The translations under genes and the position numbers were made by a program. A DNA stretch of 64,000 bases. Origin: Bradyrhizobium macuxiense (GTDB taxonomy: Bacteria > Pseudomonadota > Alphaproteobacteria > Rhizobiales > Xanthobacteraceae). The DNA is taken from assembly GCF_001542415.1 (NCBI RefSeq), contig NZ_LNCU01000040.1:59676-123675 (forward strand), given 5' to 3'. Below the pieces are notes generated by a model. The model was not told the origin of the DNA. It saw nothing but the letters and a program-made list of their open reading frames with translations, and ran no database searches. Shown here piece by piece: positions 7,947 to 39,229 of the stretch. The first letter of the stretch is position 1. The number at the start of each line of letters is the position of its first letter.

Positions 7947-7947
7947 A

Positions 7948-7992
7948 TATGTTACAAAAACTTCTTGCATTATGAAATTTATGTTATATATT
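7948..7992 (+). promoter_or_regulatory. paaA promoter with paired direct repeats (PaaX operator candidate)
   Basis: TTGCAT (7965-7970) and TATATT (7987-7992) with 16-bp spacing form a sigma70-like promoter in an AT-rich island. The direct repeats TATGTTACA (7948-7956) and TATGTTATA (7980-7988) are 32 bp apart, three helical turns. One flanks the -35 and the other overlaps the -10, as expected for repression. Assignment to PaaX is an inference from proximity. Confidence 0.6.
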
Positions 7993-8021
7993 GGCCCCAA
8001 TAACACCCCGGGAGGTCGGCC

Positions 8022-9014
8022 ATGTATACGCAGGCGCTCAACACGTCCGACGGCGACGATCGCGCGGTCGAGGATGCCGCCCGAGCCGCGGAGTTTCAGG
8101 CACGTATCGATCAGGACGAGCGGATCGAGCCGAACGACTGGATGCCGGCCGCCTATCGCAAGACGCTGACCCGGCAGATTTCCCAACACGCCCATTCCGA
8201 AATCGTCGGCATGCTGCCGGAAGGCAACTGGATCACGCGCGCGCCGAGCCTGCGCCGCAAGGCCGCGCTGCTCGCCAAGGTGCAGGACGAGTGCGGCCAC
8301 GGTCTCTATCTTTATGCCGCCGCCGAGACACTCGGCACATCGCGCGAAGAACTGGTCGATGCGATGCTGGCGGGGAAGGCGAAATATTCCTCGATCTTCA
8401 ACTATCCGACGCTGACCTGGGCCGATATCGGCACCATCGGCTGGCTGGTCGACGGCGCGGCGATCATGAACCAGATCCCGCTGTGCCGCTGCTCCTACGG
8501 TCCCTATGCGCGCGCGATGATCCGCGTCTGCAAGGAGGAGTCGTTCCACCAGCGCCAGGGCTTCGAGATCATGGTGACGCTGTGCCGCGGCACGGCGGAG
8601 CAGAAGGCGATGGCCCAGAACGCGCTGGATCGCTGGTGGTGGCCGGTGCTGATGATGTTCGGCCCGCCGGACCAGGCGAGCCAGCACGGCGACACCTCGA
8701 CCAGGTGGAAGATCAAGCGCTTCTCCAACGACGAGCTGCGCCAGAAATTCGTCGATGCCACCGTGCCGCAGGCGCAGTTCCTGGGTCTGACCATTCCCGA
8801 TCCCGGCATGAAGCAGAACGAAAACGGCAACTGGGAATACAGCCCGATCGACTGGGAAGAGTTCAAGCAGGTGCTGGCCGGCAATGGTCCCTGCAACCGC
8901 GATCGGCTCGCGGCGCGCCGCAAGGCGCATGAGGAGGGCGCCTGGGTGCGCGAGGCCGCGATGGCCTATGCCGAGAAGCGCAAGAGCCGCCAGCTCGCGC
9001 AAGCCGCCGAATAA
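8022..9014 (+). CDS. paaA: 1,2-phenylacetyl-CoA epoxidase, catalytic subunit PaaA
   Basis: A 330-residue bacterial di-iron monooxygenase subunit that epoxidises the ring of phenylacetyl-CoA. Metal-binding residues are visible in the [11 protein letters not shown] motif and in [12 protein letters not shown] (two ExxH-type sites). It starts at an ATG behind a strong GGGAGG RBS. It heads the paaABCDE operon with the PaaX-type gene immediately upstream. Confidence 0.96.
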
Positions 9015-23912: not shown

Positions 23913-25016
23913 TCAGCGTCCTCGCTGCTGTCCCCATTCGCGCACGAGGTGCTGCGCTTCGGTGATCTCACGCGACGTCATTCGTGTTGCCACGAGGTCG
24001 CGCGCGCGTTCGGCACTGCGGCGGCCTTCGTTAGCCTTGTATGACAAGACAGCGAGGCTGAGCCATTTATACGCCTGGAGATCGTCTTGAGGCACGCCGC
24101 GGCCGAGTGCGTAGGCGACGCCGAGACTGAGCCGGGCGTGCGGGATGCCGCTCTCGGCAGCGCGTCGATACCATTCGGCGGCTACCGCGAAATCCTGCGC
24201 CACGCCTTGTCCGGTTTCATACATCTGGCCGAGATTGTATTGCGACGTGCCGTCACCTTCATCGGCCAGGCGACGCCAGAGTCGGATTGCGCTCGCATAG
24301 TCGCTCCGGCTCGCGGCCAGGTAGGCCGCGGCGAAGCGTTGATCGGTCCGGGGCGGGTGCGGCGATCCAGCGGTGTCTCCTGCAGGCGGCAGATCGAGGC
24401 TTGCAATCTGCCGATCGACCGAGGGCGGCGAGGGGGACGGCCGAGGCCGTCCAATCATGATCGCTCCCATCGAGCGCAGATCGTCGGGCGTCAGCCATGC
24501 GATGCTCTGAGCTGGCGTGACCACGATTTGCCCGATGATGCGCGGCGGCACGCCATATGCACTGACGATCCTCGCCATGGAGATCGTTGCCGCCTCGGTC
24601 TGCGCGGTCTCATGGCCCAATTTGTCGGATACGCCGTGGACGCCGATCGCGGCTTCATAGCCTGCGAACTTCTCGATCCCGGCGGCGAATATGATGAAGC
24701 ATGCCGATGCGCAGTGTGCGCCTCCCGCGACGACCGTCGGGAGTTTCGCCCGGCGGATCAAATCGGCGAACTTGACCGCCTCCACAAGGCTCCCACCCGG
24801 TGAATCGAGGCGCACCGCCGACACGAGCCGACCGTTTTCATTGGCGGTGCGGAGCAACGCCTCCATCGCTTCGGTATCACCTTCTGCGACGTCGCCGCTG
24901 AGCTCGATGATGGTCGCGTCATCCTTCGATGTCACGCTGGAGAGTTCGGCGGCAGTCCCGGCCGCGCTTGCGACGACTGCACCCAGAAGGCCCAACATGG
25001 ATGTCCGTATCGACAT
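23913..25016 (-). CDS. Periplasmic ClpP-like protein with Sel1 repeats
   Basis: A 367-residue exported protein. A signal peptide (MSIRTSMLGLLGAVVASAAG) precedes a ClpP/crotonase-like domain (about residues 25-180) with LDSPGGSLVEAVKFADLIR and GGAHCASACFIIFAAG, where the serine of ASACF is the likely nucleophile. A Pro/Ser-rich linker follows, then Sel1 repeats (YNLGQMYETGQGVAQDFAVA and LGVAYALGRGVPQDD). The start at 25016 is preferred over 25124, which lies in gspD. It follows gspD by 22 bp and is probably co-transcribed. Confidence 0.85.
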   Translation of the reverse strand: MSIRTSMLGLLGAVVASAAGTAAELSSVTSKDDATIIELSGDVAEGDTEAMEALLRTANENGRLVSAVRLDSPGGSLVEAVKFADLIRRAKLPTVVAGGAHCASACFIIFAAGIEKFAGYEAAIGVHGVSDKLGHETAQTEAATISMARIVSAYGVPPRIIGQIVVTPAQSIAWLTPDDLRSMGAIMIGRPRPSPSPPSVDRQIASLDLPPAGDTAGSPHPPRTDQRFAAAYLAASRSDYASAIRLWRRLADEGDGTSQYNLGQMYETGQGVAQDFAVAAEWYRRAAESGIPHARLSLGVAYALGRGVPQDDLQAYKWLSLAVLSYKANEGRRSAERARDLVATRMTSREITEAQHLVREWGQQRGR

Positions 25017-25038: not shown

Positions 25039-27429
25039 TCAGTTCTGCTTCGAATGTGGCGGGGGCGCAGGCGGAGGCTCCGGCGGCCGATTGAAGGCGG
25101 AAGGCGTGCGGTGCATCGTATCAAGGCGTGCCCTGAATTCCTCGGCCACTACCTGAGCATCGAGGCTGTTGCGGACGAGTTTCGTCGTGACGAAGACGAT
25201 GATCTCGGAGCGGGTCTTGCTGTCACTCTTGTTGCTGAGCAGATCGCCCAGATACTTGATCTCGGCAATCCCTGGAACTCCGGCGATGGTTCTTTCGTCG
25301 TCTTCCTTGATCAGCCCACCAAGCAGCACTGTCTGTCCGCTCGTCGTGTTGATCGTCGAGTGGATGCGCCGTTGCGAGATCGTCGGGGTCAAATTCTGGC
25401 TGCTGGCTCCACCTGGATTGACGACGTTGGAGATCTCCTGCTCGATCTCGAGTTCGATCGATCCGTTCGGATGAACGTGCGGCAGCACCTTCAGGATGAT
25501 TCCGGTGTTGTGCATCGTGATCGTGTTCACCACGGTGTTCGACGAGGACAGCACGGTGGCGCTGCCGGTCGAAATCGGAACCTGGTCGCCGACCTCGAGA
25601 ATCGCCGGCTGGTTGTCGGAAACCGACAGCGAAGGCGCCGAGAGCACCTTGACGGTCGTCAAGGTGGAGAGCGCACTCAGGATCAGCTTGGGGTTCGCTT
25701 CGGATCCGAGCAGCATATTGAATCCGGGCAGTACGCGCGACAGCAGGGCGGTTTGCGCCGTCGACTGCGCGGCATTGAACAGCCCGACCGACCCCTTGTC
25801 GCCGTAGGCGCCGCCGGTGGCGGCGGCGCTCGTGAGGTAGGCCTGCACGCCATACTGCAACTGGTCCGTCAGCGTCACTTCGGCGACCATCGCATCAACC
25901 GCGACCTGCAGCCGCGGGCGATCGATCGCCGCCAGCGCGCGCTCGATCACGACGTAGTCGTCCTGGTTGGAATAGACCATGATTGAGTTGGTGGATGTAT
26001 CGGCCGTGATCCGGACGTTCTGGAACACGCCGCGCGGCATGGCCCCGGGTCCCGCGCCGCCAAGGTTCGACGACGCATCCTGGTCGTCGTCCTTCGAAAA
26101 GCCGGCTTGCGTTGCGCCGCCGCGATTTGTCGCCGAGCCTGAGTTGTCAGTGCCGCCCTGCTGGGTTGTCGATCCCTGGCTGTTGTTATTGCTGCTGAGC
26201 GTGCCGCTGCCGAGTGAATCCAGGCGCGACGTCGCCGCGCCTTGTCCGGGTGCGGTTGTGCTCTGGCCGTCGGAGCCGCCGCCTTGCTGCGAGGAGCGGC
26301 CGACGAACATCTCGTTGAGCAGGCGGGCGATGCTGCGCGCATTGCCGAAGCGCAAACTGTAGACCCGCACCGTGGTGCCGCTGGGGTCGGAACGGTCCAG
26401 CCGGCTGACCCACTGGGTGGCGCGCTCCAGCATCTTGCTGTTCTTGCTCACGGCCAGCACCGCATTCATGCGCGTCACCGGCTGGAACTTGATCACACCC
26501 TGTCCTTGGCCGCCGTCAGCGGTGTCGAACACACGCTCGAGCTCGCGGATGATCGTGTCGGGGGATGTCGATTTCAGAGGATAGAGCCCGACAGATTGGT
26601 TGCGCAGCCATTCGACGTCGAGGTTTTCGATGACCCCAAGCGCGGCCTGGCGCTCCGAGGCGGTACCTTGGATAAGAAGGACATTCCGCGCCTGATCGAC
26701 CCGAACCGAGCCGGGCCGCGACAGGAAGCTCTCAGCAGTCTTTGCGATCGCCGCGGCCGAGGTGTAGCGCAGTGGAACGATCGAGACGCCAAACCCGGGC
26801 TCGCCGGCGCCGAAAGTGGCGGCCCCGACTCCGGCCGCCTCAGGGAGCGGTACGATCTTGACCAGGTTGCCCTCACGGAGCACCGCGGCATTCGACATGC
26901 GCAGCACGTTCTCGAATATCGGCAGCACATCCTTGCGCTGGATGGGGCGCGCCGACGCAAGCGTCACGTTCCCCTGGACGCGCGAGTCAATCACGTAATT
27001 CAGTCCGAGGCTGTCGCCGAGCAGTGATTTTGCAACCGTCTGAATATCGGCGTTGTCGAAATTCATCTCGATGCCGTCGCCCGTCGTCGCCACGCCGTCT
27101 TCCGTCGTTGCGACGTGCACTTCGGTCCCGGGCTTGTCGGGCGATGCGGGGGCCGTGGTGCCATCATCTTGCGCGGCGCCTGGGAACACCAGGGGCCGTT
27201 GTGATCGGCCGGGCGCGGTCTGGCCTGTGAGTTGACCGCCGTTCGCGTTCGTCCAGTGCGCGCGCAGATCCGCATCGCGGATCGGATCGATGACCAGATC
27301 GCGGCCAGGCAGATCTGCGCTCTTCTCGACCCAGCAACCGCCCAGCAGGCTGCCCATCAAGAGACACAAGCCCACCTTGGCGGCGAATGCCGCCGGGCGT
27401 GAGCGACGAGACCAGCCGATACACTCCAC
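25039..27429 (-). CDS. gspD: Type II secretion secretin GspD, lipoprotein form
   Basis: A 796-residue outer-membrane secretin. The N terminus has a lipobox (LLGGC, Cys32). An N0 domain (about residues 118-190) is followed by N1-N3 repeats, a low-complexity Ser/Gly/Gln insert (about 376-456) and the secretin core, including VKVLSAPSLSVSDNQPA and VLLGGLIKEDD. The tail is proline-rich. The GTG start is supported by GGGAGA upstream. A lipidated secretin recalls HxcQ, which reaches the outer membrane without a pilotin; no pilotin gene was seen here. Confidence 0.93.
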   Translation of the reverse strand: MECIGWSRRSRPAAFAAKVGLCLLMGSLLGGCWVEKSADLPGRDLVIDPIRDADLRAHWTNANGGQLTGQTAPGRSQRPLVFPGAAQDDGTTAPASPDKPGTEVHVATTEDGVATTGDGIEMNFDNADIQTVAKSLLGDSLGLNYVIDSRVQGNVTLASARPIQRKDVLPIFENVLRMSNAAVLREGNLVKIVPLPEAAGVGAATFGAGEPGFGVSIVPLRYTSAAAIAKTAESFLSRPGSVRVDQARNVLLIQGTASERQAALGVIENLDVEWLRNQSVGLYPLKSTSPDTIIRELERVFDTADGGQGQGVIKFQPVTRMNAVLAVSKNSKMLERATQWVSRLDRSDPSGTTVRVYSLRFGNARSIARLLNEMFVGRSSQQGGGSDGQSTTAPGQGAATSRLDSLGSGTLSSNNNSQGSTTQQGGTDNSGSATNRGGATQAGFSKDDDQDASSNLGGAGPGAMPRGVFQNVRITADTSTNSIMVYSNQDDYVVIERALAAIDRPRLQVAVDAMVAEVTLTDQLQYGVQAYLTSAAATGGAYGDKGSVGLFNAAQSTAQTALLSRVLPGFNMLLGSEANPKLILSALSTLTTVKVLSAPSLSVSDNQPAILEVGDQVPISTGSATVLSSSNTVVNTITMHNTGIILKVLPHVHPNGSIELEIEQEISNVVNPGGASSQNLTPTISQRRIHSTINTTSGQTVLLGGLIKEDDERTIAGVPGIAEIKYLGDLLSNKSDSKTRSEIIVFVTTKLVRNSLDAQVVAEEFRARLDTMHRTPSAFNRPPEPPPAPPPHSKQN

Positions 27430-27474: not shown

Positions 27475-29595
27475 TCAATGCTGATCGTTTGCTGCTTTCC
27501 AAGGACGACCGGTGCGACCGATGCTGCTCCCGGCAAGGTCTTCGACCTGTCTGACCAACGCGTCGGCGCGATCGATCAGAACGCGGGCGTAGGCCGGATC
27601 AATCGGTCGGTGTGCGAAAGCCGCGCCATCGAGCAGCGCCTTGGTCTCTCGGACGAGGGGGGCGCGGGCGGCAATCACCGCACCGATCGCGTCGAGATAG
27701 CGCGCATAATCGGTGTCGGTGCTCTTGATGGCCTGGGTGGAGAACGCGAGGCTGTTGCGCCCGAGCTGCCCGAGCGGATCATTCAGCTCCCTGTAGGCAT
27801 ACGCCAGAGCAATGAACGCGTCGCGGCCGCGCTGCAGCTCCGGAGCCAGCGCGCCGGGCTCCACCGCCTCCGCCAGCACTACGCCATCGTGCACGTAGCT
27901 GTCGGTCAGGCCGACAAGGGCAAGCATGGTTGGCCGCAGATCGGTGTGACCGGAGACGATCTCCATGTTGAGTCCGAGATGTGCGACACCGGGACCGGCC
28001 ATCCCGAACCAGGCGTTGTCGGAGATTTGCGGAACGTTGCCGTCGGTCCGCGCATATTTTGGATTCTGCTCGACGCAGGGAGCCGATGCGCTGCAGTCCG
28101 CCTGGCTCGTGACGGTCTCGTTGAAATAGTTGGGGTCGCCAAACATGATGAAGTTCGCCGAGCGCGCCGAACTTCCGGTGATCATGTGCAGGAGCTGCAT
28201 CTCTGCACGATCTGCGAAGAATGCAGCCAAATTGTCGTTCTTGTTGGTGATTGGATTGAGCACGATGAGCTTGCTGACGTCCTGCTCGAGCGTGCGCGTC
28301 AGCGGATCGGTCGCAAGCGGGTTGTCGCGGATATAGAACGACGGTGCGCTGCCGAAATGAATATCAAACGCGGTTACGTTGCGGCGCTGGGTGACGAGCA
28401 GACGATTGATCGCGGTGTCGATCTCGCCGATCTGCGGATAGGCGCAAGGTAGCGCTACGCCGTCGCAATCCGGCGGGGTCGGCGGCCCGCTGGCGAAATG
28501 GTCGTTCTCCGCGGCAACGATGATGAAGAGGGTGTTGGCCTTGTTGATCCCGTCAGCGGCAAGCCGGTCGATGAAGAGCTTGAAGGCGGTATCGAAGGCC
28601 GAGAGGCCGGCCTGGGAAGCCGGCTCGCCAGGGCCGGACGCGCGTTCCGAGCGAGGATCGCTGATGTCGCCGATCGATACGTAGACGACCGGCACCCCTG
28701 CTTCGAGCATCGTTGCAGCGTAGCTGAGCGACTGCGCGGCGCCGAGCTCGAATACGTTCTGTGAACCCGCATTGTCGGCGGTGTTCAGGACGTTGCCGCC
28801 GAGGTCCTTGATCGGACCGCCCGGCGAGATTACGGGTTGGACGTGACGATTGCCGAACAGGGCGCTGAATCCGGAATAGCCTCCGGGCTCGTCGGGCAGA
28901 ATGTCGGGGCGCGTTTCGGCATTGGCGCAAAGGCTGCTTGCGCGCGCGCAATGGATCGCGATCCCCAGCAGATCCGCCTTGGCCCTGGCGGGATCGCTTG
29001 CTGCCTCCGATGCCTCGGGCGAACTCGGGCCGAACACGTTCACAACATCGGGCGCGAGGTTTTGGAGCTCGAGATTGGCGGTCGCAAGGGCGCCGACGTC
29101 GCAGCCTGCGCGCGTAAATGGCACCCAAGGGGCAGACACCGTCTTGCCGGTGTCGGCCAGCATCAGCGGCTTGCCGTCACCGCCGGTCGTGGTCCAATAG
29201 GCGCGCGAGTTTGCAAAGCCAATGCTGCCGTCCCCGCGGAAGTAACCGTAGCTGTCCGCCACGGGTACACCGGTGCGATCGCCATAGAGGCCGGTCAGGA
29301 TGGTCAAAGCGGCGGCGGCTTTCTGCACGAGCGGCACGCGATGGTTGCCGCCAACGGTTCCGTCACGCGCAAAAAAGTCGAGCAGGTGAGGCATCTGCTC
29401 GAGATCCGACGGGACGTTTGGATTTTCGCGCCGCAAATGCGCGTAACCGAGCTGAATTTGAACCACATGCTTGGTGGCGCCGTCGCGGGAACGCAATGCG
29501 CACGCGGTAGCGGCAGCCCGCGTGGACCCCAGAGCCAGGAACACGACGCCAAGCAGCGGCGGCACGACGCCGACAATGAAGCAACGCGAACGCAT
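27475..29595 (-). CDS. Secreted alkaline-phosphatase-superfamily protein
   Basis: About 706 residues with a signal peptide ending near TRAAATACA. The N-terminal NHRVPLVQKAAAALTILTGLYGDRTGVPV, the middle VAAENDHFASG and the late SGHTDLRPTMLALVGL resemble the metal and nucleophile regions of alkaline phosphatase/phosphodiesterase folds. The usual first metal ligand and the Ser/Thr nucleophile are not obvious. A GTG at 29625 is an alternative start; the ATG at 29595 gives a cleaner signal peptide. It lies between gspD and gspC and may be a type II substrate. Confidence 0.65.
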   Translation of the reverse strand: MRSRCFIVGVVPPLLGVVFLALGSTRAAATACALRSRDGATKHVVQIQLGYAHLRRENPNVPSDLEQMPHLLDFFARDGTVGGNHRVPLVQKAAAALTILTGLYGDRTGVPVADSYGYFRGDGSIGFANSRAYWTTTGGDGKPLMLADTGKTVSAPWVPFTRAGCDVGALATANLELQNLAPDVVNVFGPSSPEASEAASDPARAKADLLGIAIHCARASSLCANAETRPDILPDEPGGYSGFSALFGNRHVQPVISPGGPIKDLGGNVLNTADNAGSQNVFELGAAQSLSYAATMLEAGVPVVYVSIGDISDPRSERASGPGEPASQAGLSAFDTAFKLFIDRLAADGINKANTLFIIVAAENDHFASGPPTPPDCDGVALPCAYPQIGEIDTAINRLLVTQRRNVTAFDIHFGSAPSFYIRDNPLATDPLTRTLEQDVSKLIVLNPITNKNDNLAAFFADRAEMQLLHMITGSSARSANFIMFGDPNYFNETVTSQADCSASAPCVEQNPKYARTDGNVPQISDNAWFGMAGPGVAHLGLNMEIVSGHTDLRPTMLALVGLTDSYVHDGVVLAEAVEPGALAPELQRGRDAFIALAYAYRELNDPLGQLGRNSLAFSTQAIKSTDTDYARYLDAIGAVIAARAPLVRETKALLDGAAFAHRPIDPAYARVLIDRADALVRQVEDLAGSSIGRTGRPWKAANDQH

Positions 29596-29850
29596 GAAGC
29601 CACGTCGGTGTTGATCGTGATGCACAATCTCAGGGATGGGACGGTGTCTTAAACCATCCTAATGTGCACGGCGTCGATGACGGTGATATGGCGGCAGCGC
29701 CTGACGTCGCGCATGACGCGAATGTCGAGAGACGATTCATCGTCACAGAACTGACGTAAAACAATTTGCCGACCCAACTCTCCATGATGGCTTGCAATGT
29801 GCGATCTTGTCGCGCAGGTTGTTGGTCTGGAAAGAGCAAGGAGAGGCGGC

Positions 29851-30411
29851 GTGGGTGCTTGGCGGTGCTGTTCGCTAGGGGCAGTCCTGTGCCTATATTC
29901 GTCCTTGGCGTGCGCGGCGGACCCGGCTCAGAACGGCAATGCTATCGCCAATGCTGGCTCAATCCAGGATGCCGCAATCAAGGTTGCTCCGATCAAGGAT
30001 GCTCCAGTCACCCCGCTGGAGCTTGAGCCGCTTGATCAGCTATCTGCGACCACGAACCGCCCGCTGTTCTCGCCGGCTCGACGGCCGCCGCCGAAGCCGG
30101 CAGTAGCCGTCGTCAGCCCTCCGGCGCCGCCCGCCCCGCCTTCTCCGCCGCCCAGCGTGGTCGTCCTCGGCATCGTCAGCGAGGACGGCGATGGGCGTGC
30201 CGCCATTCGCTCTCGCGACAAGGACAAGGTCACGCGTGTGCGTATCGGTGATGATGTCAGCGGCTGGAAGGTTGATCGGATCGAACCGCGCCGGCTGGTT
30301 CTGACGCAGGGCGAGCGTTCGGTTGATTTTTCGATGTTCAGTACGGCGGCGAAGGCCCGGAAAGCAGCAGAGCCTGTTGTGGCCGAGCGACATCCCCGGC
30401 AGGTCCATTAG
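29851..30411 (+). CDS. gspC: Type II secretion GspC/GspN-like protein
   Basis: The GTG at 29851 is chosen because AGGAG stands 7 bp before it and it gives a clean export signal (MGAWRCC then LGAVLCLYSSLACA); the ATG at 29797 has no RBS. The 186-residue product has TTNRPLFSPARRPPP, then a Pro-rich linker, then a GspC homology-region-like domain (VVVLGIVSEDGDGRAAIR to ERSVDF). GspC links the inner-membrane platform to the secretin. There is no PDZ domain, so this is a short form. Confidence 0.72.
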   Translation: MGAWRCCSLGAVLCLYSSLACAADPAQNGNAIANAGSIQDAAIKVAPIKDAPVTPLELEPLDQLSATTNRPLFSPARRPPPKPAVAVVSPPAPPAPPSPPPSVVVLGIVSEDGDGRAAIRSRDKDKVTRVRIGDDVSGWKVDRIEPRRLVLTQGERSVDFSMFSTAAKARKAAEPVVAERHPRQVH

Positions 30412-30920: not shown

Positions 30921-31514
30921 TCAACCGCGCAGCAGCCGCGTCGAATAGTAGGTGAGCCAGAGGGCTGGGCACAGAAATGCGCCGAGCGGAATCCTCGCGG
31001 TCCTTTCGATGGGTTCGCCGCGCCAGCGCGCAATGAGCACCGCGATCAGCGCCGCGCTGGTCGCCAGCGTGAGGCAGATCGGCACGACATCGAGCGGCAG
31101 CCAGGCGCCGATGGCGGCGGCGAGCTTGACGTCGCCGAGCCCGATTCCTTCGCGGTGCCGCAGCCGCGCGTACGCCCAGCGCACGAGCCAGAGCCCCCCA
31201 CCAACGAGCAATGCGCCCGCGGCCGCGATGGCGAAGCTGGCCAGGGGATCGAAGGGATCGAGCGCGCTTGCTGCGACAAGTCCGGACAATGCGGCGCCGC
31301 CGGTCACGATATCCGGAAGCAGGAAGATTCGCATATCGACGTCGGCGCCGGCGATCATCAACGCTCCCAGCACGGTCGATGCCGCAGCGTCCGGCCACGG
31401 CAGCGTGGCTGCGGAGACCAACCCGACGGCAGCAGATCCGAAAATCAGCACGACGAGGTTCGGACGGAGGTTTTCGTCCGTTGCGGCGGGATCGGCATTC
31501 TGGTCGATCGACAT
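30921..31514 (-). CDS. gspO: Prepilin peptidase GspO (A24, minimal form)
   Basis: A 197-residue polytopic aspartyl protease that cleaves the leader of type II pseudopilins. The two catalytic motifs are DVDMRIFLLPD and GLGDVKLA. The N-terminal cytoplasmic methyltransferase domain of classical PilD/GspO, with its four cysteines, is absent, so this protein probably only cleaves. The ATG at 31514 follows a GAGG RBS and is preferred to an upstream start at 31607. It is divergent from gspE. Confidence 0.88.
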   Translation of the reverse strand: MSIDQNADPAATDENLRPNLVVLIFGSAAVGLVSAATLPWPDAAASTVLGALMIAGADVDMRIFLLPDIVTGGAALSGLVAASALDPFDPLASFAIAAAGALLVGGGLWLVRWAYARLRHREGIGLGDVKLAAAIGAWLPLDVVPICLTLATSAALIAVLIARWRGEPIERTARIPLGAFLCPALWLTYYSTRLLRG

Positions 31515-31621
31515 CGTCGCCTCGCTCGGCGTTGCGTGAAACGTGGTGCCATCGCGCGCGGTCCGCGCGCTGACCTGAGAACCAACATAGCGGTGCGAAA
31601 GATACAAGCGGAAGACAGCGC

Positions 31622-33298
31622 ATGCTACCGACTGATTTCATAGGCCATCTCGCCAGCAGGGGCGTGCTGCCTGACGGTCAGAGCGCGGATATTGCGCTCG
31701 CCGCACGCGCCGGCGATGGCTGGTCCGGCAATATCGATTGGGGCGCAGTGACGAAACTGACGCCCACCGCTCTCGCCGACGAACTGGCGGCATTTTACAG
31801 CTGCAGCCGTGTCCAGCGTGACGACCTGGTCGGAGGGCGCTTTGCCGGCGCCGAGATGTCAACGCGTTTCCTGCGGGAGTGCCGGCTGTTTCCCTACGAA
31901 AATCCGGCCGGCACGCTCAAGCTTGCGATCGCGGCCCCGATCGACAAGGAGACCCTGCGGGCGATCGAACTCGCGCTGCGTCAGCCGATCGCGCTGACAG
32001 TGACCACCAGCGACGACCTCGAGGCCGCACTGTCGGTGACGCTCAAGGCCGATCAGCACGATGCCGCGCCGGAGGCGGCCGCCAGTCCGCGCGAGGACGA
32101 TCTTGATAATTTGCGCGACCTCGCGCGGGGCGCACCGGTGGTTCGCGCGCTGGACGACATGCTGCGGCTCGCGGTCGAGCAGCGTGCAACCGACCTGCAC
32201 ATCGAGCCGGACGGCAGCATGCTTCAGGTCAGGCTGCGCGTCGACGGCATGCTGAAGACCATTCCGTCGCTGCCGGTGAGCATGGCCAAGGGCATTCTGT
32301 CGCGCCTCAAGATCATGGCCGGCTTGAACATCACCGAGCGGCGCCTGCCGCAAGATGGACGGGCGCGCATCACTGTCAGCGGTGCCGAGATCGACCTGCG
32401 CGTCGCCACGGCGCCCTCGATGCACGGCGAGAGCGCGGTCGTGCGACTGTTGCGCAAGGGGGCCGGTCTCGTGGCTCTCGACCAGATCGGTCTTGGCGCG
32501 CGAGACGAGGGCATCCTGCGCAAGACGCTTCAGGCGCCATTCGGGATGGTGATCGTGACCGGCCCGACCGGATCGGGCAAGACCACCACGCTGGCTGCGT
32601 CGCTCGCTGTCATCAACGAGCCAACCCGCAAGATCCTGACCGTTGAGGATCCGGTCGAGTACCAGATTCAGGGCATCACGCAGACCCAGGTGCATCCGGG
32701 CATCGGGCTCACCTTCGCGTCCGCCTTGCGCTCGTTCCTGCGGCACGATCCTGACGTTATCATGGTCGGCGAGATGCGCGACGCTGAGACGGCGCATATC
32801 GGCGTCCATGCCGCGCTGACCGGGCATCTCGTGCTCACGACCTTGCACACCAACACGGCGGCGGGCGCGATCACGCGATTGGTCGACATGGGGATCGAGA
32901 GCTTCCTGCTGGCCTCGTGCGCGCGGGCGATCGTCGGCCAGCGGCTGGTGCGCATCCTGTGCGACCATTGCAAGGAATCCTACCGCTTGACGGCCACGGA
33001 TATTGCCGCCGACGAGCGCTACGCGGCGCTCGGTGTTCACGTTGGCGAGACCATGTGCCGGCCCAAGGGCTGCGAATGGTGCGGCTTCTCGGGATTCCGA
33101 GGCCGTAAGGGCGTGTTCGAGGTCATGGAGATCGGCCCGGAGCTGCGACGGGCGATCGGTCCGAAAACCGATGCGAATGATCTCGAGGCCATCGCCAGAC
33201 GCGAGGGCATGACCACCATGACCGAGGACGGAGTTGCCAAGCTGCGGGCAGGGCAGACGACGCTGGAAGAGGTCTTTCGCCTCACCATGAGCCTGTGA
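31622..33298 (+). CDS. gspE: Type II secretion ATPase GspE
   Basis: A 558-residue cytoplasmic ATPase that powers pseudopilus assembly. Residues about 1-150 form the GspE N-terminal domain; the ATPase core has Walker A GPTGSGKTTT, the Asp box LTVEDPVEYQI, Walker B HDPDVIMVGEMRDAETA and a His box around LTTLHTNTA. Near the C terminus CDHC and CKGCEWCGFSGF-like spacing give the four zinc cysteines of GspE. It begins the gspEFGHIJKLM operon. Confidence 0.96.
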   Translation: MLPTDFIGHLASRGVLPDGQSADIALAARAGDGWSGNIDWGAVTKLTPTALADELAAFYSCSRVQRDDLVGGRFAGAEMSTRFLRECRLFPYENPAGTLKLAIAAPIDKETLRAIELALRQPIALTVTTSDDLEAALSVTLKADQHDAAPEAAASPREDDLDNLRDLARGAPVVRALDDMLRLAVEQRATDLHIEPDGSMLQVRLRVDGMLKTIPSLPVSMAKGILSRLKIMAGLNITERRLPQDGRARITVSGAEIDLRVATAPSMHGESAVVRLLRKGAGLVALDQIGLGARDEGILRKTLQAPFGMVIVTGPTGSGKTTTLAASLAVINEPTRKILTVEDPVEYQIQGITQTQVHPGIGLTFASALRSFLRHDPDVIMVGEMRDAETAHIGVHAALTGHLVLTTLHTNTAAGAITRLVDMGIESFLLASCARAIVGQRLVRILCDHCKESYRLTATDIAADERYAALGVHVGETMCRPKGCEWCGFSGFRGRKGVFEVMEIGPELRRAIGPKTDANDLEAIARREGMTTMTEDGVAKLRAGQTTLEEVFRLTMSL

Positions 33299-33305
33299 GG
33301 GACGG

Positions 33306-34511
33306 ATGCCGCACTATCGCTACAGCGCAATGACCAAGACCGGCGAGGTCGTGCTCGGCGACGCCGATGCGCCCTCGCGCGAGGAGGTCTTGCGGCGCAT
33401 CGAGTATCTCGGGCACCTGCCGATCGAGATGGAGGTCATCGCAGACCAGGCGTTGCGCGCGAGCCTGCTTGGTCGCGGATTGCCGAACCCTCGCGAGCTG
33501 ACGATCTTCTTGCGTCTGCTTGCGTTGCTGCTGCGCTCGGGATTGACGCTCGAGACCGCCCTGCAAACCCTCGAGGATGATCCCAATAAGGCGGTTGCGC
33601 GTTTTGCCGGCGGACTTCGTTCGTCGATTTCGGCGGGCGACGGCTTCGCCGAGACGCTGGAGCGCTATCCTTCGATCATCGAGCCGATCTATATCGCGAT
33701 GGTGCGCGCGGGCGAGATGTCCGGCAAGCTCGAAACGGTGCTGCGGGCGATCGTCGAAGACCGGGCACGACGGGAGCAGCTCTCGCAACGGATCGTCGCG
33801 GCAATCCGATACCCGATGTTTTTGGTCGGATCGGCCGTCCTCATTTTGTTTTTCTTCCTGCTCGCCGTGGTGCCGCAATTCGAACCCGTGTTCAGGGAGC
33901 TGGGCGGCCGGCTGAATTCCGGCGCGGCGTTCGTGCTTGCGGCGTCGACCGGGTTGCGTGCCCATCTCGATCTGTTCATGTGCATCTGCCTGGCCGCCAT
34001 TCTGATCGGCTGGCTGGTGTTGCGGCAACCGACCACCCGGGCGGCGCTGCTGGGGATGGTGGCAACGATTCCCGGCGTGTCCGGGCCGATGCGTGACCGG
34101 CGCACCGCCCGGTTCGTCGGCACGCTCGGCCTGCTGGTCGAGAACGGCGTGGCGCTGCCGGCGTCGCTGAAGATCCTGCGCGACGTCATGACGGAGCCTC
34201 GATATGCCGCCGCGGTCGAGCAGGTGCATGAGCAGGTGCGCAACGGCCGCCGCTTCATCGACGCGCTGGCCGAGAGCGACCTGGTGCCGCCGCTGGCCGT
34301 CCGCATGCTCGGGGTCGGCGACGCCACCGGCGACCTGTCGGCGATCGCGCGACACGCGGCCCAATATTACGAGGAACGGCTCGGCATTGGACTCGATCGG
34401 CTGATGGGCGCGATCGGACCGGTGACGATCATCCTGGTCAGTGTCGGTATCGGCGCGCTCGTCGTATCGATCATGAGTGCCCTACTAAGCATAACGGAGC
34501 TCGCACTATGA
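33306..34511 (+). CDS. gspF: Type II secretion inner-membrane protein GspF
   Basis: A 401-residue platform protein with two T2SSF domains, each a helical bundle followed by membrane segments. The first has LLALLLRSGLTLETALQTL and the YPMFLVGSAVLILFFFLLAVVPQFEPVF membrane region; the second has LGLLVENGVALPASLKILRD. It follows gspE by 7 bp and overlaps gspG by ATGA. Confidence 0.95.
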   Translation: MPHYRYSAMTKTGEVVLGDADAPSREEVLRRIEYLGHLPIEMEVIADQALRASLLGRGLPNPRELTIFLRLLALLLRSGLTLETALQTLEDDPNKAVARFAGGLRSSISAGDGFAETLERYPSIIEPIYIAMVRAGEMSGKLETVLRAIVEDRARREQLSQRIVAAIRYPMFLVGSAVLILFFFLLAVVPQFEPVFRELGGRLNSGAAFVLAASTGLRAHLDLFMCICLAAILIGWLVLRQPTTRAALLGMVATIPGVSGPMRDRRTARFVGTLGLLVENGVALPASLKILRDVMTEPRYAAAVEQVHEQVRNGRRFIDALAESDLVPPLAVRMLGVGDATGDLSAIARHAAQYYEERLGIGLDRLMGAIGPVTIILVSVGIGALVVSIMSALLSITELAL

Positions 34512-34978
34512 ATGAGTTGCTTCAAGGATGCCGTCCGGTTCGTGCTCGCGCCGTTCATCTCCGCGGCAGCCCCGGGTTTACGCTGGTCGAAATGCTGGTG
34601 GTGCTCACCATCATCGGCCTCATCATGGGCCTCATCGGCCCGCGGGTGCTGGGCTATCTGTCGGAGTCCAAGGTCAAGACCGCGAAGCTGCAGATCGAAA
34701 GCCTCAGCTCGTCGCTGGACCTGTTCTATCTCGACGCCGGACGCTACCCGTCGAGCTCGGAGGGGCTGCAGTCGCTCGTTGCGCGCCCGAGCGGCGTCGA
34801 AGTCTGGAACGGTCCCTATGTGAAGGGAGGACGTATTCCGCTCGATCCCTGGGGCCACCCTTACCAATACCGTGCGCCTGTCGATCACTCGCCGCCCTAC
34901 GAGATCGTGTCCTTGGGCTCTGATGGAAATGAAGGCGGATCGGGTAACGCGGCCGATGTCACAAGCATCGCGCACTGA
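34508..34978 (+). CDS. gspG: Major pseudopilin GspG
   Basis: A 156-residue class III signal protein. The prepilin cleavage site is PG|FTLVEMLVVLTIIGLIMGLIG with Glu at +5 of the mature protein. The C-terminal part has YPSSSEGLQSLV and a calcium-loop-like PLDPWGHPYQYR, both typical of GspG. The leader before the cleavage site is long (about 22 residues). Overlaps gspF and gspH. Confidence 0.95.
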   Translation: MNELLQGCRPVRARAVHLRGSPGFTLVEMLVVLTIIGLIMGLIGPRVLGYLSESKVKTAKLQIESLSSSLDLFYLDAGRYPSSSEGLQSLVARPSGVEVWNGPYVKGGRIPLDPWGHPYQYRAPVDHSPPYEIVSLGSDGNEGGSGNAADVTSIAH

Positions 34979-35408
34979 TCCCAGATCGGGCTTCACCCTG
35001 ATCGAAGTCATGGCGGTGATGACGATCATTGCCATGCTGGCTTCGCTTGCGGTGGCGTTCATTCCGGGCACTGGCCGGGCGGATATTAAAGTCCTGACGC
35101 TACGGACGGCCGCGTTGCTTCGCCGCGAGCGGCTCGGAGCGATCTTGACGGGGCACAGTCGCCGGATCGCGCTCGATGTCGGAGAGCGGGCGCTGGTCGG
35201 GGACGGCGGCGAGGTTCTTCCCATTCCGCGCGACGTCGTCCTCGATGTCGTCGGCGTGGACGAGCGGTGGTCCGGACGACAGGCCGTCGTTCGCTTCGAA
35301 CCCGATGGCGCGTCGACCGGTGCAAAGCTGAGGTTTTCGCGGGAAGGAGCCGACTATGAGGTCAACGTCAATTGGTACACCGGCCGCGTTGCGATCGATC
35401 CGCCGTGA
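34956..35408 (+). CDS. gspH: Minor pseudopilin GspH
   Basis: A 150-residue minor pseudopilin with the leader MSQASRTDPRSG|FTLIEVMAVMTIIAMLASLAV and Glu at +5. The mature region is short with few cysteines, as in GspH. The ATG at 34956 lies inside the 3' end of gspG (23-bp overlap); an earlier in-frame start at 34872 would give a longer leader and is unlikely. Confidence 0.88.
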   Translation: MSQASRTDPRSGFTLIEVMAVMTIIAMLASLAVAFIPGTGRADIKVLTLRTAALLRRERLGAILTGHSRRIALDVGERALVGDGGEVLPIPRDVVLDVVGVDERWSGRQAVVRFEPDGASTGAKLRFSREGADYEVNVNWYTGRVAIDPP

Positions 35409-35859
35409 CGTTGTCATCAGTCGTGCAGGCTTTACCTTGATCGAGGCGCTGGTCGCCATGGCTCTGCTCCTGGCGTTCGTATCGGTGCTGGTGCCCCACA
35501 TGTTTCAGGCGCGTCGCATCGCTGTGAATGCGCAGCAGCGCGTTGCCGCGCAGGGATTTCTGCGTGGGCTTCTGGACGCCCCCCTTGATCGTCTGGCGCT
35601 GCGGAAGGGGCCTCGCGAAGGCGAAACCGACGGCTTGCAATGGTCGGTCGAGGCCGAGCCGATGTTCGTCGACGCGATGCTGCCGGCGGATGGTCCGGAA
35701 CCGTCAGTCCTGAAAGCGGCTGCCAAGGACCCCGTACCCAAGAAGAATCCCGCACCCAAACGCCCACACTGGACGGCGTTCCGGGTGATCGCGAAAGTGT
35801 CGTGGGGACCTGGGCAGATGGTCACCGCCGAGACGGTGCGGCTTGGAGTCGGGGGATGA
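35356..35859 (+). CDS. gspI: Minor pseudopilin GspI
   Basis: A 167-residue protein with a prepilin leader ending SRAG|FTLIEALVAMALLLAFVSVLVP. The ATG at 35356 is supported by AAGGAG just upstream and gives a 53-bp overlap with gspH. A Pro/Lys-rich stretch (KDPVPKKNPAPKRP, about residues 128-141) is unusual for GspI. It ends with ATGA into gspJ. Confidence 0.88.
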   Translation: MRSTSIGTPAALRSIRRDVVISRAGFTLIEALVAMALLLAFVSVLVPHMFQARRIAVNAQQRVAAQGFLRGLLDAPLDRLALRKGPREGETDGLQWSVEAEPMFVDAMLPADGPEPSVLKAAAKDPVPKKNPAPKRPHWTAFRVIAKVSWGPGQMVTAETVRLGVGG

Positions 35860-36626
35860 CCACGACCGCCGCACCGGTCCGTCGCTCGCGCGCAGGCTCC
35901 AGAGCTGACCTGGCAGGCTTCACCCTGATCGAGGTGCTGGCCGCGCTGGCGATTTCCTCGGTCGTGATCGTTGCCACGGCCGCCTTCCTTCACGACGTCG
36001 CGCTCAACTTCGATCGTGGAACGCAGGTGGTGGGCAATGCGGAACATATGCTGCTCGCCGTCGACCGCCTCTCGGCCGATTTTGGATCGGCTCGTCCGGT
36101 GCCGCAGGCAGGTGAGGCAACCAAGGTGGCGTTCGTGGGCGCGCCCACCATGGTCAAGTTCGTCGCGGCAGGTGGGGTCGCCGCCGGACCGCAAGGGGAA
36201 GAGCTGGTCAGCCTGACGGTCGAGCAAACGGACCGCGCGAGCCGACTGATCAGGCGCCGCGCCGCCTGGCGCGGACCGCTCACACGATTCGACGGCGTCC
36301 CCCTTGGCGACAAGGTCGACTTGATCGAAGGACGGGTCGACATTGCCTTCGCATTCGGTCGTGTGGCTCCGAATGGCGCGGTCACGTGGAGCGAGACCTG
36401 GACGGCGCAACCGCGGCTGCCGGGCCTTGTGCGGCTGACGGTTCGCGACCGCGCCAGCGGCGCGGAACTGATACCCGGTGCGCAGTTCGTGCTCCGCGCC
36501 GACGCGCCGGCCGATTGCGCGGGCAACGCAGCGTGTCAGAGCGGCGGCAAGCCAAACGAGCCGGCGAAAGATGAGCAGGCACAGGACGCGCCGACCAAGG
36601 ACGCGCCGACGGGAGAACGGCGATGA
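35856..36626 (+). CDS. gspJ: Minor pseudopilin GspJ
   Basis: A 256-residue minor pseudopilin with cleavage at LAG|FTLIEVLAALAISSVVIVATAAF. Residues about 210-220 (PGLVRLTV) match the late GspJ strand. The C terminus is a charged, repetitive tail (KDEQAQDAPTKDAPTGERR) not typical of the family. The upstream frame from 35640 lies in gspI and is rejected. It is coupled to gspI and gspK by ATGA overlaps. Confidence 0.9.
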   Translation: MTTTAAPVRRSRAGSRADLAGFTLIEVLAALAISSVVIVATAAFLHDVALNFDRGTQVVGNAEHMLLAVDRLSADFGSARPVPQAGEATKVAFVGAPTMVKFVAAGGVAAGPQGEELVSLTVEQTDRASRLIRRRAAWRGPLTRFDGVPLGDKVDLIEGRVDIAFAFGRVAPNGAVTWSETWTAQPRLPGLVRLTVRDRASGAELIPGAQFVLRADAPADCAGNAACQSGGKPNEPAKDEQAQDAPTKDAPTGERR

Positions 36627-37636
36627 GCCGCAACGACACCCGACGAGGCATGGTTCTGTTCAACGTGCTGTGGGCGATCGCGTTTTGTGCGGCGCTGGCG
36701 ATGGCGACGTCGACGACTTTTCGCAGCCTCACTGGAATCATCGTGATTGATCGCGACCGTGTGCAGGCCGACGGCCTCTTGACTGCCGGCCTCGAGGTCG
36801 CTGCCGGCATTGCCGGAGACATGCCGAATACGCCGATTACCGATCGCAGCACCGTCGTCACCTTGTCGACCGGGTCGGTCAGTATCCGTCTGGGTGACGA
36901 GAGCGGCCGCGTCGACATCGGCAAGGCGCCCGTCGAGCTGCTTGCCTCGCTGCTCCGTTATGTCGGCGCCGACGACGGCGACGCTGACGTCATTGCCAAG
37001 AGGATTGTCGATCGGCGGGGCCCGGAGCAGAAGGCCAAGCCGAATGACCCGGCGAAACAGCAGCCCGCGGCAGGGAACAGCGATGCCCAGAAGGCGGCAA
37101 CAACGCCGCAAGGGAACGCACCGCAAGCTAATGCACCCCAAGCGAACACTGATCCGTCCAAGGATCCGTCCAAGGCAGCGCCCGTGCACCCTGCGCCGTT
37201 TACCGACATACGGCAGCTCGCCGGCATACAAGGAATGCGGCCGGAATGGATTTCCGCCTTGGCGCCGCTGATCACCGTTTACGGGAGCGATACCGTCAAC
37301 CCGCTTGCGGCACCGGTCGCGGTCATCAGGGCGCTGCCGTTTGTCGATGAGGCGCGGCTGGACACCTTCCTCAACATGCGGGGGGCGCTGGTGGACCCCG
37401 AGCGGCTCGCTTTCGCGCTCGGCCCGGCACAGAAATATCTCAAGGTTCAGGAGCGCCAGGTCGTCTCTGTGGACCTCGTGGCCAGCACCCACGACGGATA
37501 CACCGCCGCAGCCAAGGCCTTCATCATGCTGCTGTCAGACAGCAAGCAGCCGTATCAGGTTCTCGCCTGGAATCCCGCCTCGACCTCCGAGCAGGCCGTC
37601 GCCGACAACAATCGGGATCGCGCCGATGCGTATTGA
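36623..37636 (+). CDS. gspK: Minor pseudopilin GspK
   Basis: A 337-residue tip pseudopilin. The leader MSRNDTRRG|MVLFNVLWAIAFCAALAMA lacks Glu at +5, as expected for GspK, which caps the tip. The helical domain has SGRVDIGKAPVELLASLLR and TDIRQLAGIQGM. About residues 132-191 are a low-complexity Pro/Lys/Gln/Asn insert with internal short repeats, much longer than usual. It overlaps gspL by 11 bp. Confidence 0.9.
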   Translation: MSRNDTRRGMVLFNVLWAIAFCAALAMATSTTFRSLTGIIVIDRDRVQADGLLTAGLEVAAGIAGDMPNTPITDRSTVVTLSTGSVSIRLGDESGRVDIGKAPVELLASLLRYVGADDGDADVIAKRIVDRRGPEQKAKPNDPAKQQPAAGNSDAQKAATTPQGNAPQANAPQANTDPSKDPSKAAPVHPAPFTDIRQLAGIQGMRPEWISALAPLITVYGSDTVNPLAAPVAVIRALPFVDEARLDTFLNMRGALVDPERLAFALGPAQKYLKVQERQVVSVDLVASTHDGYTAAAKAFIMLLSDSKQPYQVLAWNPASTSEQAVADNNRDRADAY

Positions 37637-38681
37637 CAGGATTTTCGTCCGAGGGCTCGACATTCTGGCCGCCATGCTGATCGGCTGGCGCGAGGGACGT
37701 CCCGCCCGGCACTGGCTGAAGATCGCGCAGCGGCGCGATCAGTTGGTCGTTCAGCAGATGCGGGGACAGGAAGTCGTCTCGTTCGATGCCCTTGCCAGCG
37801 GCGCAGCGCTTCCGCCCGAGATTGCCCGCGTCGCGCAAAAATCCTTCACGGTGGTGGAGCTGTCGGCTGACGATATCATCTCGCGTCGCATGGACGTTCC
37901 GGCCCAGGCCCGAGACCTGTTGCCCGGCATCGTGCGCAATCAGATCGAGCGGCTTTCGCCCTGGCGCGTGAACCAGGCCGTCTATGGCTTCGACGCGCGC
38001 GATCGCGGAGATACGGCCGGACTCGATGTGCGGGTGCTGATCACCTCGCGCGCCGTACTCGATGAGGCGAGCCAGCGCGCCGGTGCGTTAGGGCTGAGGG
38101 TCGACCGCGTCGTGGCCGGCGAGGGCCTGGCCGATGTCGCCGCGCCTGTCACGATGTGGTCCCGGGCCGCGGATGCATCCGACCAGAGCTTGTCGCGGGC
38201 GCGCAAAATGATCGCGGGCTTCGTCGCCGCCACGGTCGCGATATCCGTGGCCGTGAGCGCTTGGGCTTTCATCACGGCGTCGTCGGCGGACAGCGAGAAT
38301 GACGAGGTCGCGGCGCGCGTCGCGACGCTACAGCGGCAGCTCCAGGGCGATCTGCCTCGGGCGTCCATCGCCTCGCTGGCCCCTCCGGAGCGCGCCTGGG
38401 CCCTCAAGGAAACGTCGCCTGTCGCGGTGGTCGTCATTGAGGCGCTCTCGCGTTCGCTTCCGGACACGTCATATCTGACGGAGTTGCATCTCGAGCGCGC
38501 GACGCTGCGCATCGTCGGTCTGGCCAACGATGCGCCGTCGCTGATTGCTCCCCTGGAGCAGTCGGGACACCTCAAGGACGTGCACTTCTTCGCCCCGACA
38601 ACGCGTGATTCCGACGGCGCGCGCTTTCTGTTCCACATCGAGGCCCGCGTCGAGCCGCATCTGAAGATCGGCGCAAACTGA
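37626..38681 (+). CDS. gspL: Type II secretion protein GspL
   Basis: A 351-residue bitopic protein: a cytoplasmic domain (about residues 1-190) that would contact GspE, one membrane helix (about 200-220, IAGFVAATVAISVAVSAWAFI) and a periplasmic PilN-like ferredoxin-fold domain with SYLTELHLERATLRIVGLA. It starts inside the gspK 3' end; earlier in-frame starts lie wholly inside gspK. Confidence 0.87.
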   Translation: MRIDRIFVRGLDILAAMLIGWREGRPARHWLKIAQRRDQLVVQQMRGQEVVSFDALASGAALPPEIARVAQKSFTVVELSADDIISRRMDVPAQARDLLPGIVRNQIERLSPWRVNQAVYGFDARDRGDTAGLDVRVLITSRAVLDEASQRAGALGLRVDRVVAGEGLADVAAPVTMWSRAADASDQSLSRARKMIAGFVAATVAISVAVSAWAFITASSADSENDEVAARVATLQRQLQGDLPRASIASLAPPERAWALKETSPVAVVVIEALSRSLPDTSYLTELHLERATLRIVGLANDAPSLIAPLEQSGHLKDVHFFAPTTRDSDGARFLFHIEARVEPHLKIGAN

Positions 38682-39229
38682 TGAATCTCAACCGGGAGCA
38701 AGCGTTCGCGATTGGAGGCCTCGGTGCCCTCCTGATCATCTGCATGTTTGCAGTCGTCTGGACGTTGCAGCTGCGCGGCGAGGCGTTGGCGAACCTCGCA
38801 GAACGCCACGACGAGCTGCAGAGCCTCGAGAGGCATATGCGATCGACGACCAATCCGCATCGGCAGTTGAGAAACCTGGCAGCGCCAGCGCAGGCATTCC
38901 TGGATGCGCCAACAAGCGGGCTCGCTACGGCCCGGTTCCAGGCCTATCTATCGCAACTGATCGCCGATCAGCACGCCGTCCTTGTCTCATCCGGAGTGCC
39001 GTCAGCCGACCGTGACGACAAGAGCGACGCGATCAAGCTCCAGGTCGCGCTGAATGCCACGCTTCCCGCCCTGCAAGGGCTGCTTTATCGGCTCGAAAGC
39101 GGCGCGCCCTATGTGCTTGTCGAGGGACTATCGATGCAACCCAGCAGCTCCGGCGAGCGCACGACCGCAAATCCAACTCTGAGGGTCAATCTGACGCTGC
39201 AGGCCTTCTGGCATCACGGGACGATCTGA
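38681..39229 (+). CDS. gspM: Type II secretion protein GspM
   Basis: A 182-residue protein with an N-terminal membrane helix (FAIGGLGALLIICMFAVVWTL), a coiled-coil stretch (ALANLAERHDELQSLERHM) and a C-terminal domain with GLLYRLESGAPYVLVEGLSMQ, a GspM/PilO-like pattern. It overlaps the gspL stop by one base and is the last gene of the operon. Confidence 0.87.
   Translation: MNLNREQAFAIGGLGALLIICMFAVVWTLQLRGEALANLAERHDELQSLERHMRSTTNPHRQLRNLAAPAQAFLDAPTSGLATARFQAYLSQLIADQHAVLVSSGVPSADRDDKSDAIKLQVALNATLPALQGLLYRLESGAPYVLVEGLSMQPSSSGERTTANPTLRVNLTLQAFWHHGTI

What the first reader, a model, noticed from the sequence alone, without database searches (positions are those of the whole stretch)
25039..27429. 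Type II secretin with a lipoprotein signal and no pilotin nearby
GspD has a lipobox (LLGGC) at the expected place, which would anchor its N terminus to a membrane. Most type II secretins need a separate pilotin lipoprotein; HxcQ of Pseudomonas is a known self-piloting lipo-secretin. This looks like an independent alphaproteobacterial case. The cluster holds no pilotin-like gene.
Basis: partly seen in the sequence, partly recalled or inferred. Interest (0 to 1): 0.7.

Follow-up and report, generated by a model that had tools for sequence, protein, structure and literature searches.

The report
Lipid-anchored secretin of an Xps-like T2SS
The outer-membrane gate of this soil bacterium's protein-export machine carries its own predicted lipid tag, and so do most of its relatives in one large branch of such machines, so it is one case of a widespread design and not an oddity.

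Summary
Confirmed: window 25039-27429(-) encodes a GspD secretin with a good start (GTG behind AGGGAG) and the lipobox LLGGC (Cys32). The PulS/OutS and AspS pilotin families were not found in the genome, and no other credible small lipoprotein gene shows in the cluster. It is very probably a liposecretin.

The framing needs correction. In a 50-row tree a 100/100 split divides T2SS secretins. Branch A holds ordinary secretins and the HxcQ-like one; branch B holds the window GspD and XpsD-type secretins. Of 94 branch-B rows in a wider tree, 80 pass a lipobox rule and 4 more have it by eye, usually with a linker of 70-80 residues before N0 and a short C-terminal tail. So the case is independent of HxcQ, but shares its branch with XpsD, whose lipobox is already in print, and is the common state among the alphaproteobacterial T2SS secretins sampled.

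This may be a swap of the secretin's own anchor for a separate pilotin. All is sequence inference; no lipidation was measured.

The parts
25039..27429 (-). gspD, 796-aa type II secretin with lipoprotein signal (Cys32), linker 33-118, N0 122-192, secretin domain 586-753, 43-aa C-terminal tail
27334..27429 (-). signal sequence and lipobox LLGGC, codons 1-32; GTG start with AGGGAG upstream
27076..27333 (-). linker between Cys32 and N0 with conserved DADLRAHW patch and a VFPGAAQ patch (YPGTGxF-like by eye); pLDDT under 50 for residues 30-101 and 108-116
23913..25016 (-). Sel1-repeat protein with ordinary-looking signal peptide, likely ATG start at 25016 (N-terminal half ClpP-like by eye only), directly downstream of gspD; candidate helper
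   Evidence: (Sel1)
27475..29595 (-). 706-aa protein with signal-like N terminus and alkaline-phosphatase-superfamily-like motifs (by eye only), directly upstream of gspD; possible substrate
   Evidence: no family; two PDB matches at E 0.23 and 0.46 only; conserved beside gspD
29797..30411 (+). gspC-like (weak GspC_delta match, 39.1 bits against cut-off 150)
30921..31607 (-). gspO prepilin peptidase (Peptidase_A24)
31622..33298 (+). gspE ATPase
33306..34511 (+). gspF
34508..34978 (+). gspG major pseudopilin
34872..37636 (+). gspH, gspI, gspJ, gspK (four overlapping ORFs, matches below the equivalog cut-offs; true starts not fixed)
37305..38681 (+). gspL, PilN-domain type (true start not fixed)
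38681..39229 (+). gspM, T2SSM_b type

Best explanation
GspD is a self-piloted liposecretin of an Xps-like T2SS. [quoted passage not shown] There the monomers assemble into the channel, while the disordered linker of about 87 residues lets N0 hang deep in the periplasm to meet GspC. No separate pilotin is needed, and the C-terminal pilotin-binding region is reduced. Shown here: the lipobox, its frequency across the branch, the linker length, the two missing pilotin families, LolA found and LolB not found, the branch shared with XpsD. Inferred: lipidation, outer-membrane destination, self-piloting.
For: Lipobox and start site. Of 94 branch-B rows 80 pass the strict or relaxed rule and 4 more have it by eye, against 3 of 34 branch-A rows, of which only L068 has a long linker. 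Cys-to-N0 distance median 74, interquartile 71-81, over the 83 rule-passing rows (80 B, 3 A). +2 Asp, the E. coli inner-membrane retention signal (recalled), in 1 of 83. C-terminal tail by a crude pattern: median 39 aa in 80 branch-B rows against 75 in 24 branch-A rows, 24 of 128 rows not scored. PulS/OutS and AspS families not found. LolA found, E 9.8e-41 (that model also rings over its cut-off in two archaeal controls, so it is broad); LolB not found, as a review states for Alphaproteobacteria (passage of PMC10787603). XpsD and HxcQ are described as carrying a lipoprotein signal (passage of PMC6617341); a Xanthomonas Xps system lacks a predicted pilotin (passage of PMC11981180).
Against: No biochemical datum for any member of this branch was seen here; the XpsD statement is second-hand. 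SignalP was not run. The trait is not perfectly stable: 15 label changes on the 128-row tree (shuffled mean 37.3) and 4 on the 50-row tree. Ten of 94 branch-B rows are not scored as lipobox: L160, L180 and L182; L062 and L142 with an ordinary signal; L161 with LTRC; L154 with its N terminus cut by the contig end; L191 on a long branch; and 2 ambiguous. One identical pair (L010, L110) is 75% identical to the window GspD yet lacks the lipobox region. A helper encoded next door is not excluded.
Confidence: 0.74

Rival explanations
1. GspD is lipidated, but piloting or assembly is done by a partner not recognised by sequence, for example the Sel1-repeat (TPR-like) protein encoded right after gspD, as TPR proteins serve type IV pilus secretins. 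The lipid anchor then only stabilises.
For: The window gene's N-terminal half has homologues near gspD in 15 window-type loci and its Sel1 half in 30 other loci, a few of them the same place (best hits), including this genome's second T2SS cluster; a B. guangxiense cluster has a SEL1-like gene two genes after gspD. TPR proteins PilF, PilW and TadD act on secretins, and Y4yS is proposed to (passages of PMC4311626).
Against: In the window-type relatives the printed hits cover the N-terminal half, so Sel1 repeats there were not shown. The N termini look like ordinary signal peptides (by eye), although one, L125, passes the lipobox rule. In annotated clusters of Methylosinus and Rhizobium no Sel1-annotated gene sits next to gspD (TPR genes lie one or two genes further in one of them; the plasmid gene tables are incomplete).
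Confidence: 0.13
2. The lipid holds the N terminus in the inner membrane, tying the N0 ring to the assembly platform, and the barrel reaches the outer membrane by another route.
For: The linker is long enough for either membrane (inference from its length). LolB is not found. The GspC-like proteins here start with what looks like a cleavable signal, which would leave them without an inner-membrane anchor (by eye).
Against: HxcQ is carried to the outer membrane as a lipoprotein (passage of PMC3542185). +2 Asp is almost absent, though that rule is unproven for alphaproteobacteria.
Confidence: 0.08
3. The signal is processed by signal peptidase I, and the Cys is incidental.
For: There is no biochemistry, and SignalP was not run.
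Against: Cys32 invariant in 19 of 19 picked rows while most residues around it vary; about 0.6% chance rate.
Confidence: 0.05

Closest known systems
XpsD of the Xanthomonas Xps T2SS
   Same: Same branch of the secretin tree, lipobox, 67-69 aa linker in L185 and L186, no predicted pilotin in X. euvesicatoria (PMC11981180 passage).
   Different: 30-33% identical by BLASTP. The window's XpsF, XpsH and XpsI matches are below the equivalog cut-offs. gspD is here transcribed apart from E-M, with gspO inside the cluster and two extra genes flanking gspD.
HxcQ of Pseudomonas aeruginosa
   Same: Works-like: lipoprotein secretin targeted without a pilotin (PMC3542185 passage); the HxcQ-like L068 has a 76-aa linker.
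   Different: Different branch: L068 sits in branch A beside lipobox-less L071 (100/100); moving it to branch B is rejected.
PulD/OutD with PulS/OutS, Vibrio-type GspD with AspS
   Same: T2SS secretin with N domains and secretin domain.
   Different: Separate lipoprotein pilotin binding the C-terminal S-domain (passages); the pilotin families are not found in this genome.

Membership tests
T2SS secretin GspD | TIGR02517 over cut-off; N0 and secretin domains; gsp cluster | tested here: met
   416.7 bits against 351.35; domains
Liposecretin (self-piloted, HxcQ definition) | Type II signal with lipobox | tested here: met
   rule-based, not SignalP
Liposecretin (self-piloted, HxcQ definition) | No pilotin | tested here: inconclusive
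   PF09691 and PF16549 not found in the genome, no other small lipoprotein in the cluster; an unknown pilotin cannot be excluded
Liposecretin (self-piloted, HxcQ definition) | Lipidation and lipid-dependent outer-membrane targeting | not testable with these tools
   needs biochemistry
HxcQ group | Groups with the HxcQ-like secretin | tested here: not met
   HxcQ-like identity of L068 itself rests on gene order
Xps-type T2SS branch (branch B) | Secretin in the same branch as XpsD | tested here: met
   100/100 split; L185 and L186 identified by XpsF and XpsH over cut-offs
Xps equivalogs proper | NCBIfam XpsF, XpsH, XpsI cut-offs | tested here: not met
   196.4, 60.4 and 25.4 bits against 650, 160 and 150

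The most novel reading that the evidence does not exclude
A whole branch of T2SSs (Xps-like, including most alphaproteobacterial T2SS secretins sampled here) is ancestrally self-piloted by a lipid on the secretin itself, in alphaproteobacteria without LolB. In a lineage that includes Comamonas, that cis anchor was replaced by a trans lipoprotein, a pilotin of no known family (lipobox Cys, RA..Y..C(4-5)C..W..W, 133-157 aa) encoded right after gspD: three genomes have both, three have only the lipoprotein.
Probability: 0.42. Interest if true: 0.68.

Novelty: new member of a known kind. Interest (0 to 1): 0.46.

Why it matters
How secretins reach the outer membrane is settled for few systems. If lipidation is the rule in this branch, a textbook step (pilotin-dependent targeting) does not apply to many T2SSs, and alphaproteobacteria, reported to lack LolB, offer a test of LolA-only delivery of a large channel. 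The genomes that carry both anchors, or only the lipoprotein, make a swap from cis to trans anchoring testable by gene removal.

Tried and rejected
Rejected: 'single odd alphaproteobacterial case'; 'close kin of HxcQ'. Not upheld: that lipobox loss always goes with a gained lipoprotein. L062 and L142 have an ordinary signal and no lipoprotein just downstream, and neither do L161, L191 or L154. The three lipobox-less rows L160, L180 and L182 are not a clade in the best tree (L213, with lipobox, is nested among them at weak support), but one clade is not rejected (p-AU 0.349), so one loss or several are both open. In one search nine of 92 branch-B rows with enough sequence showed a lipobox ORF within 900 bases downstream; five are the family discussed, and I set aside L125 (Sel1 protein), L047 (offset 620, probably spurious) and L058 (looks like a prepilin peptidase) by eye; L166 looks like a real but different lipoprotein. 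Two lipobox calls in branch A (L073, L079) have 23-24 aa linkers and a plausible signal-peptidase-I site and are probably false. The structure of the 706-aa neighbour failed (mean pLDDT 29.7) and was not searched. The GspD model is modest (58.8) and was used only for the disorder of the linker. No fold search was run. That GspC is itself a lipoprotein (SSLAC at 29797): no Cys stands at that place in most GspC-like relatives listed (by eye).

Rows dropped before the trees: of 186 ORFs with an N0 match, 178 entered selection after short or partial ones and L004, L066, L189 (duplicates), L010 and L110 (N terminus broken) were removed; 50 near-duplicates were then dropped, leaving 128. Four rows (L144, L150, L163, L175) were labelled lipo? 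and two (L048, L159) ambiguous by hand. L154 is labelled 'none' although its N terminus is cut by a contig end. The 50-row tree was hand-picked: 49 of the 128, plus L213. In one search rows without N0 or with N0 too close to the end were skipped (named in that output). The loci are the best-scoring ones that each search returned (at most 30 a search), not a random sample.

Papers: PMC3542185, PMC2996285, PMC6617341, PMC4471445, PMC4311626, PMC12802150, PMC10128026, PMC8134430, PMC11981180 and PMC10787603 were seen as passages only; all others as search listings. The HxcQ paper (Viarre 2009) is not held and is cited through others.

Full report
What is there. The window lies in an 8.72-Mb genome. 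Its nearest named relatives are Bradyrhizobium, and L110, of a genome of the window's own genus code, encodes the same GspD as the named B. cenepequi locus L010, so the genus is Bradyrhizobium by inference. The ORF at 25039-27429(-) is a complete GspD: TIGR02517 416.7 bits over a 351.35 cut-off, N0 at 122-192, secretin domain at 586-753, and kin of solved GspD channels. The start is GTG behind GCAGGGAGAATTGTA. The first 32 residues form a lipoprotein signal ending LLGGC.

Around it is a T2SS cluster: E, F, G, H, I, J, K, L (PilN type) and M (subtype b) on the plus strand, with a gspC-like ORF and gspO between (C and H-K are weak matches). gspD lies in a minus-strand row: a 706-aa protein of unknown family, then gspD, then a Sel1-repeat protein that starts 22 bases after the gspD stop. 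The first of these is conserved beside gspD in 14 loci of the window type (L009, L098-L109, L111; L009 and L109 probably one genome) with a partial match in L133. It has no Pfam or NCBIfam match and only chance-level PDB matches.

Is the lipobox more than chance? A rule (lipobox pattern, hydrophobic stretch, basic n-region, start codon at the right distance) was run on the region before N0. Strict hits: own genome 2 of 3 scored secretins; named alphaproteobacterial loci 16 of 19; genus 23 of 29; order 24 of 27; class 18 of 29; phylum top hits 2 of 30; named gammaproteobacterial loci 2 of 7. Codon-shuffled controls: 89 of 14,400 in all; in the refined run, strict 55 and relaxed 95 of 7,320. Several strict misses still carry the Cys: L100, L102, L103 and L104 have LLGGC and pass the relaxed rule, L046 and the own-genome L003 too. 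Cys32 is invariant in a 19-row alignment that left out L010.

Tree. A 128-row tree has one deep split, also found with 100/100 support in a 50-row tree and in all 200 bootstrap trees. Branch A: 34 rows, 31 without lipobox. Branch B: 94 rows, 80 lipobox, 4 by eye, 8 none, 2 ambiguous. The label still changes at least 15 times on the large tree (shuffled mean 37.3) and 4 times on the small one. Two genomes whose GspF and GspH pass the XpsF and XpsH equivalog cut-offs (746 and 773 bits against 650; 249 and 225 against 160) have their lipobox secretins (L185, L186) in branch B. A cluster whose order resembles the recalled hxc order has its lipobox secretin (L068) in branch A, sister to lipobox-less L071, which comes from the same genome as L185. 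Forcing L068 into branch B costs 50.8 log units, p-AU 0.0013. So lipid anchoring probably arose at least twice; the trees are unrooted.

Anatomy of the branch. From Cys to N0 the distance is median 74 residues (interquartile 71-81; 83 rows, of which 3 are branch A and 2 of those doubtful); in many lipobox-less branch-A secretins N0 follows the signal closely. In the window the linker is predicted disordered. A loose GTGxF[IV]-like patch precedes N0 in many rows, and a similar patch stays in the Comamonas-type secretins without lipobox (RGTDKVL, RGTDRVI, by eye); many Rhizobiales rows add a DLxAR-like patch. D54 in the window's DADL is invariant in 19 of 19 and L55 nearly so. The C-terminal tail is short, median 39 against 75 residues by a crude pattern (104 of 128 rows scored), fitting a reduced pilotin-binding region.

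Delivery. LolA is found (a broad model, over its cut-off in two archaeal controls too) and LolB is not, as stated for Alphaproteobacteria in a passage of PMC10787603. Pilotin families PF09691 and PF16549 are not found.

A natural experiment outside the window. Three branch-B secretins of one 100/100 group (Comamonas odontotermitis plasmid L160; unnamed L180 and L182) have an ordinary signal and no lipobox. All three have a lipoprotein gene that starts 16-61 bases after gspD, similar to each other (to the L160 protein: L180 34%, E 5e-22; L182 26%, E 5e-9); the L160 protein has no Pfam match. L169, in the same group, carries both a lipobox secretin and this gene (32%, E 9e-13). L187, in the neighbouring group with XpsD, also carries both, but its gene is a weak match (24%, E 0.064) supported by place and by the shared Cys and Trp positions. 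A profile of these five found six genomes of 299: four are its own members, one is new and strong (G464, E 2e-32), whose gene also follows a branch-B gspD that has a lipobox, and one is weak (G469, E 3e-4) and not examined. The window's genome, one of the 299, has none at E 0.001. No branch-A row had a lipobox ORF just downstream, of 31 with enough sequence. The simplest reading is that a trans lipoprotein was gained first and the cis anchor then lost. Caution: these are few, related rows; other lipobox-less rows have no such gene; function is untested.

Literature. Liposecretins are a known kind: HxcQ (PMC3542185 passage) and, with it, XpsD (PMC6617341 passage), and the remark that many such systems need no pilotin because the secretin is a lipoprotein or uses general pathways (PMC4471445 passage). 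The 2013 secretin study grouped Pseudomonas, Xanthomonas and Legionella sequences together and set them aside (PMC3542185 passage). My searches listed no paper whose title or abstract start names an alphaproteobacterial T2SS liposecretin or a branch-wide survey; the library lacks most subscription papers, and only passages were read.

Verdict. The interest lies in the branch-wide pattern and in the lineage that may have swapped the anchor.

Noticed in passing
L160:12200-12634, L193 about 7927-8328 (-), L194 about 8444-8818 (-), L203:8297-8713 (-), L201:11229-11642, L213 about 4726-5085 (-): Small lipoproteins (paired Cys, no Pfam match for the L160 member) encoded right after branch-B gspD; candidate new pilotin family, present with or without a lipobox on the secretin.
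   Followed up: partly
L166, 18 bases after its gspD: A 188-aa lipoprotein-like ORF (LSAC) of a different sequence follows another branch-B gspD that itself has a lipobox.
   Followed up: no
window 27475-29595: 706-aa protein conserved beside gspD in 14 window-type loci, no family; motifs look like the alkaline phosphatase superfamily by eye. Possible T2SS substrate (Hxc exports a phosphatase, recalled).
   Followed up: partly
window 23913-25016: Sel1 repeats behind a domain that looks ClpP-like by eye; in other clusters the two halves match separate genes near gspD.
   Followed up: partly
window 29797-30411 and GspC-like ORFs of L009, L162: GspC-like proteins seem to start with a cleavable signal and not a membrane anchor (by eye), which would be unusual for the protein that links the two membranes.
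   Followed up: no
L205:8748-10967 (own genome C39); L161: A 739-aa secretin with LLTGC in a cluster that looks like a T3SS (by eye) falls in T2SS branch B on a long branch with a B. japonicum plasmid secretin near annotated T3SS genes.
   Followed up: partly
L206 (own genome C130): Second T2SS of the genome, also branch B, secretin lipobox LSAC, with a gspO-like ORF and a Sel1-repeat gene nearby.
   Followed up: partly
L010:10001-12193 and L110: GspD 75% identical to the window's but with the signal and lipobox region replaced by unrelated sequence; perhaps a damaged copy.
   Followed up: no
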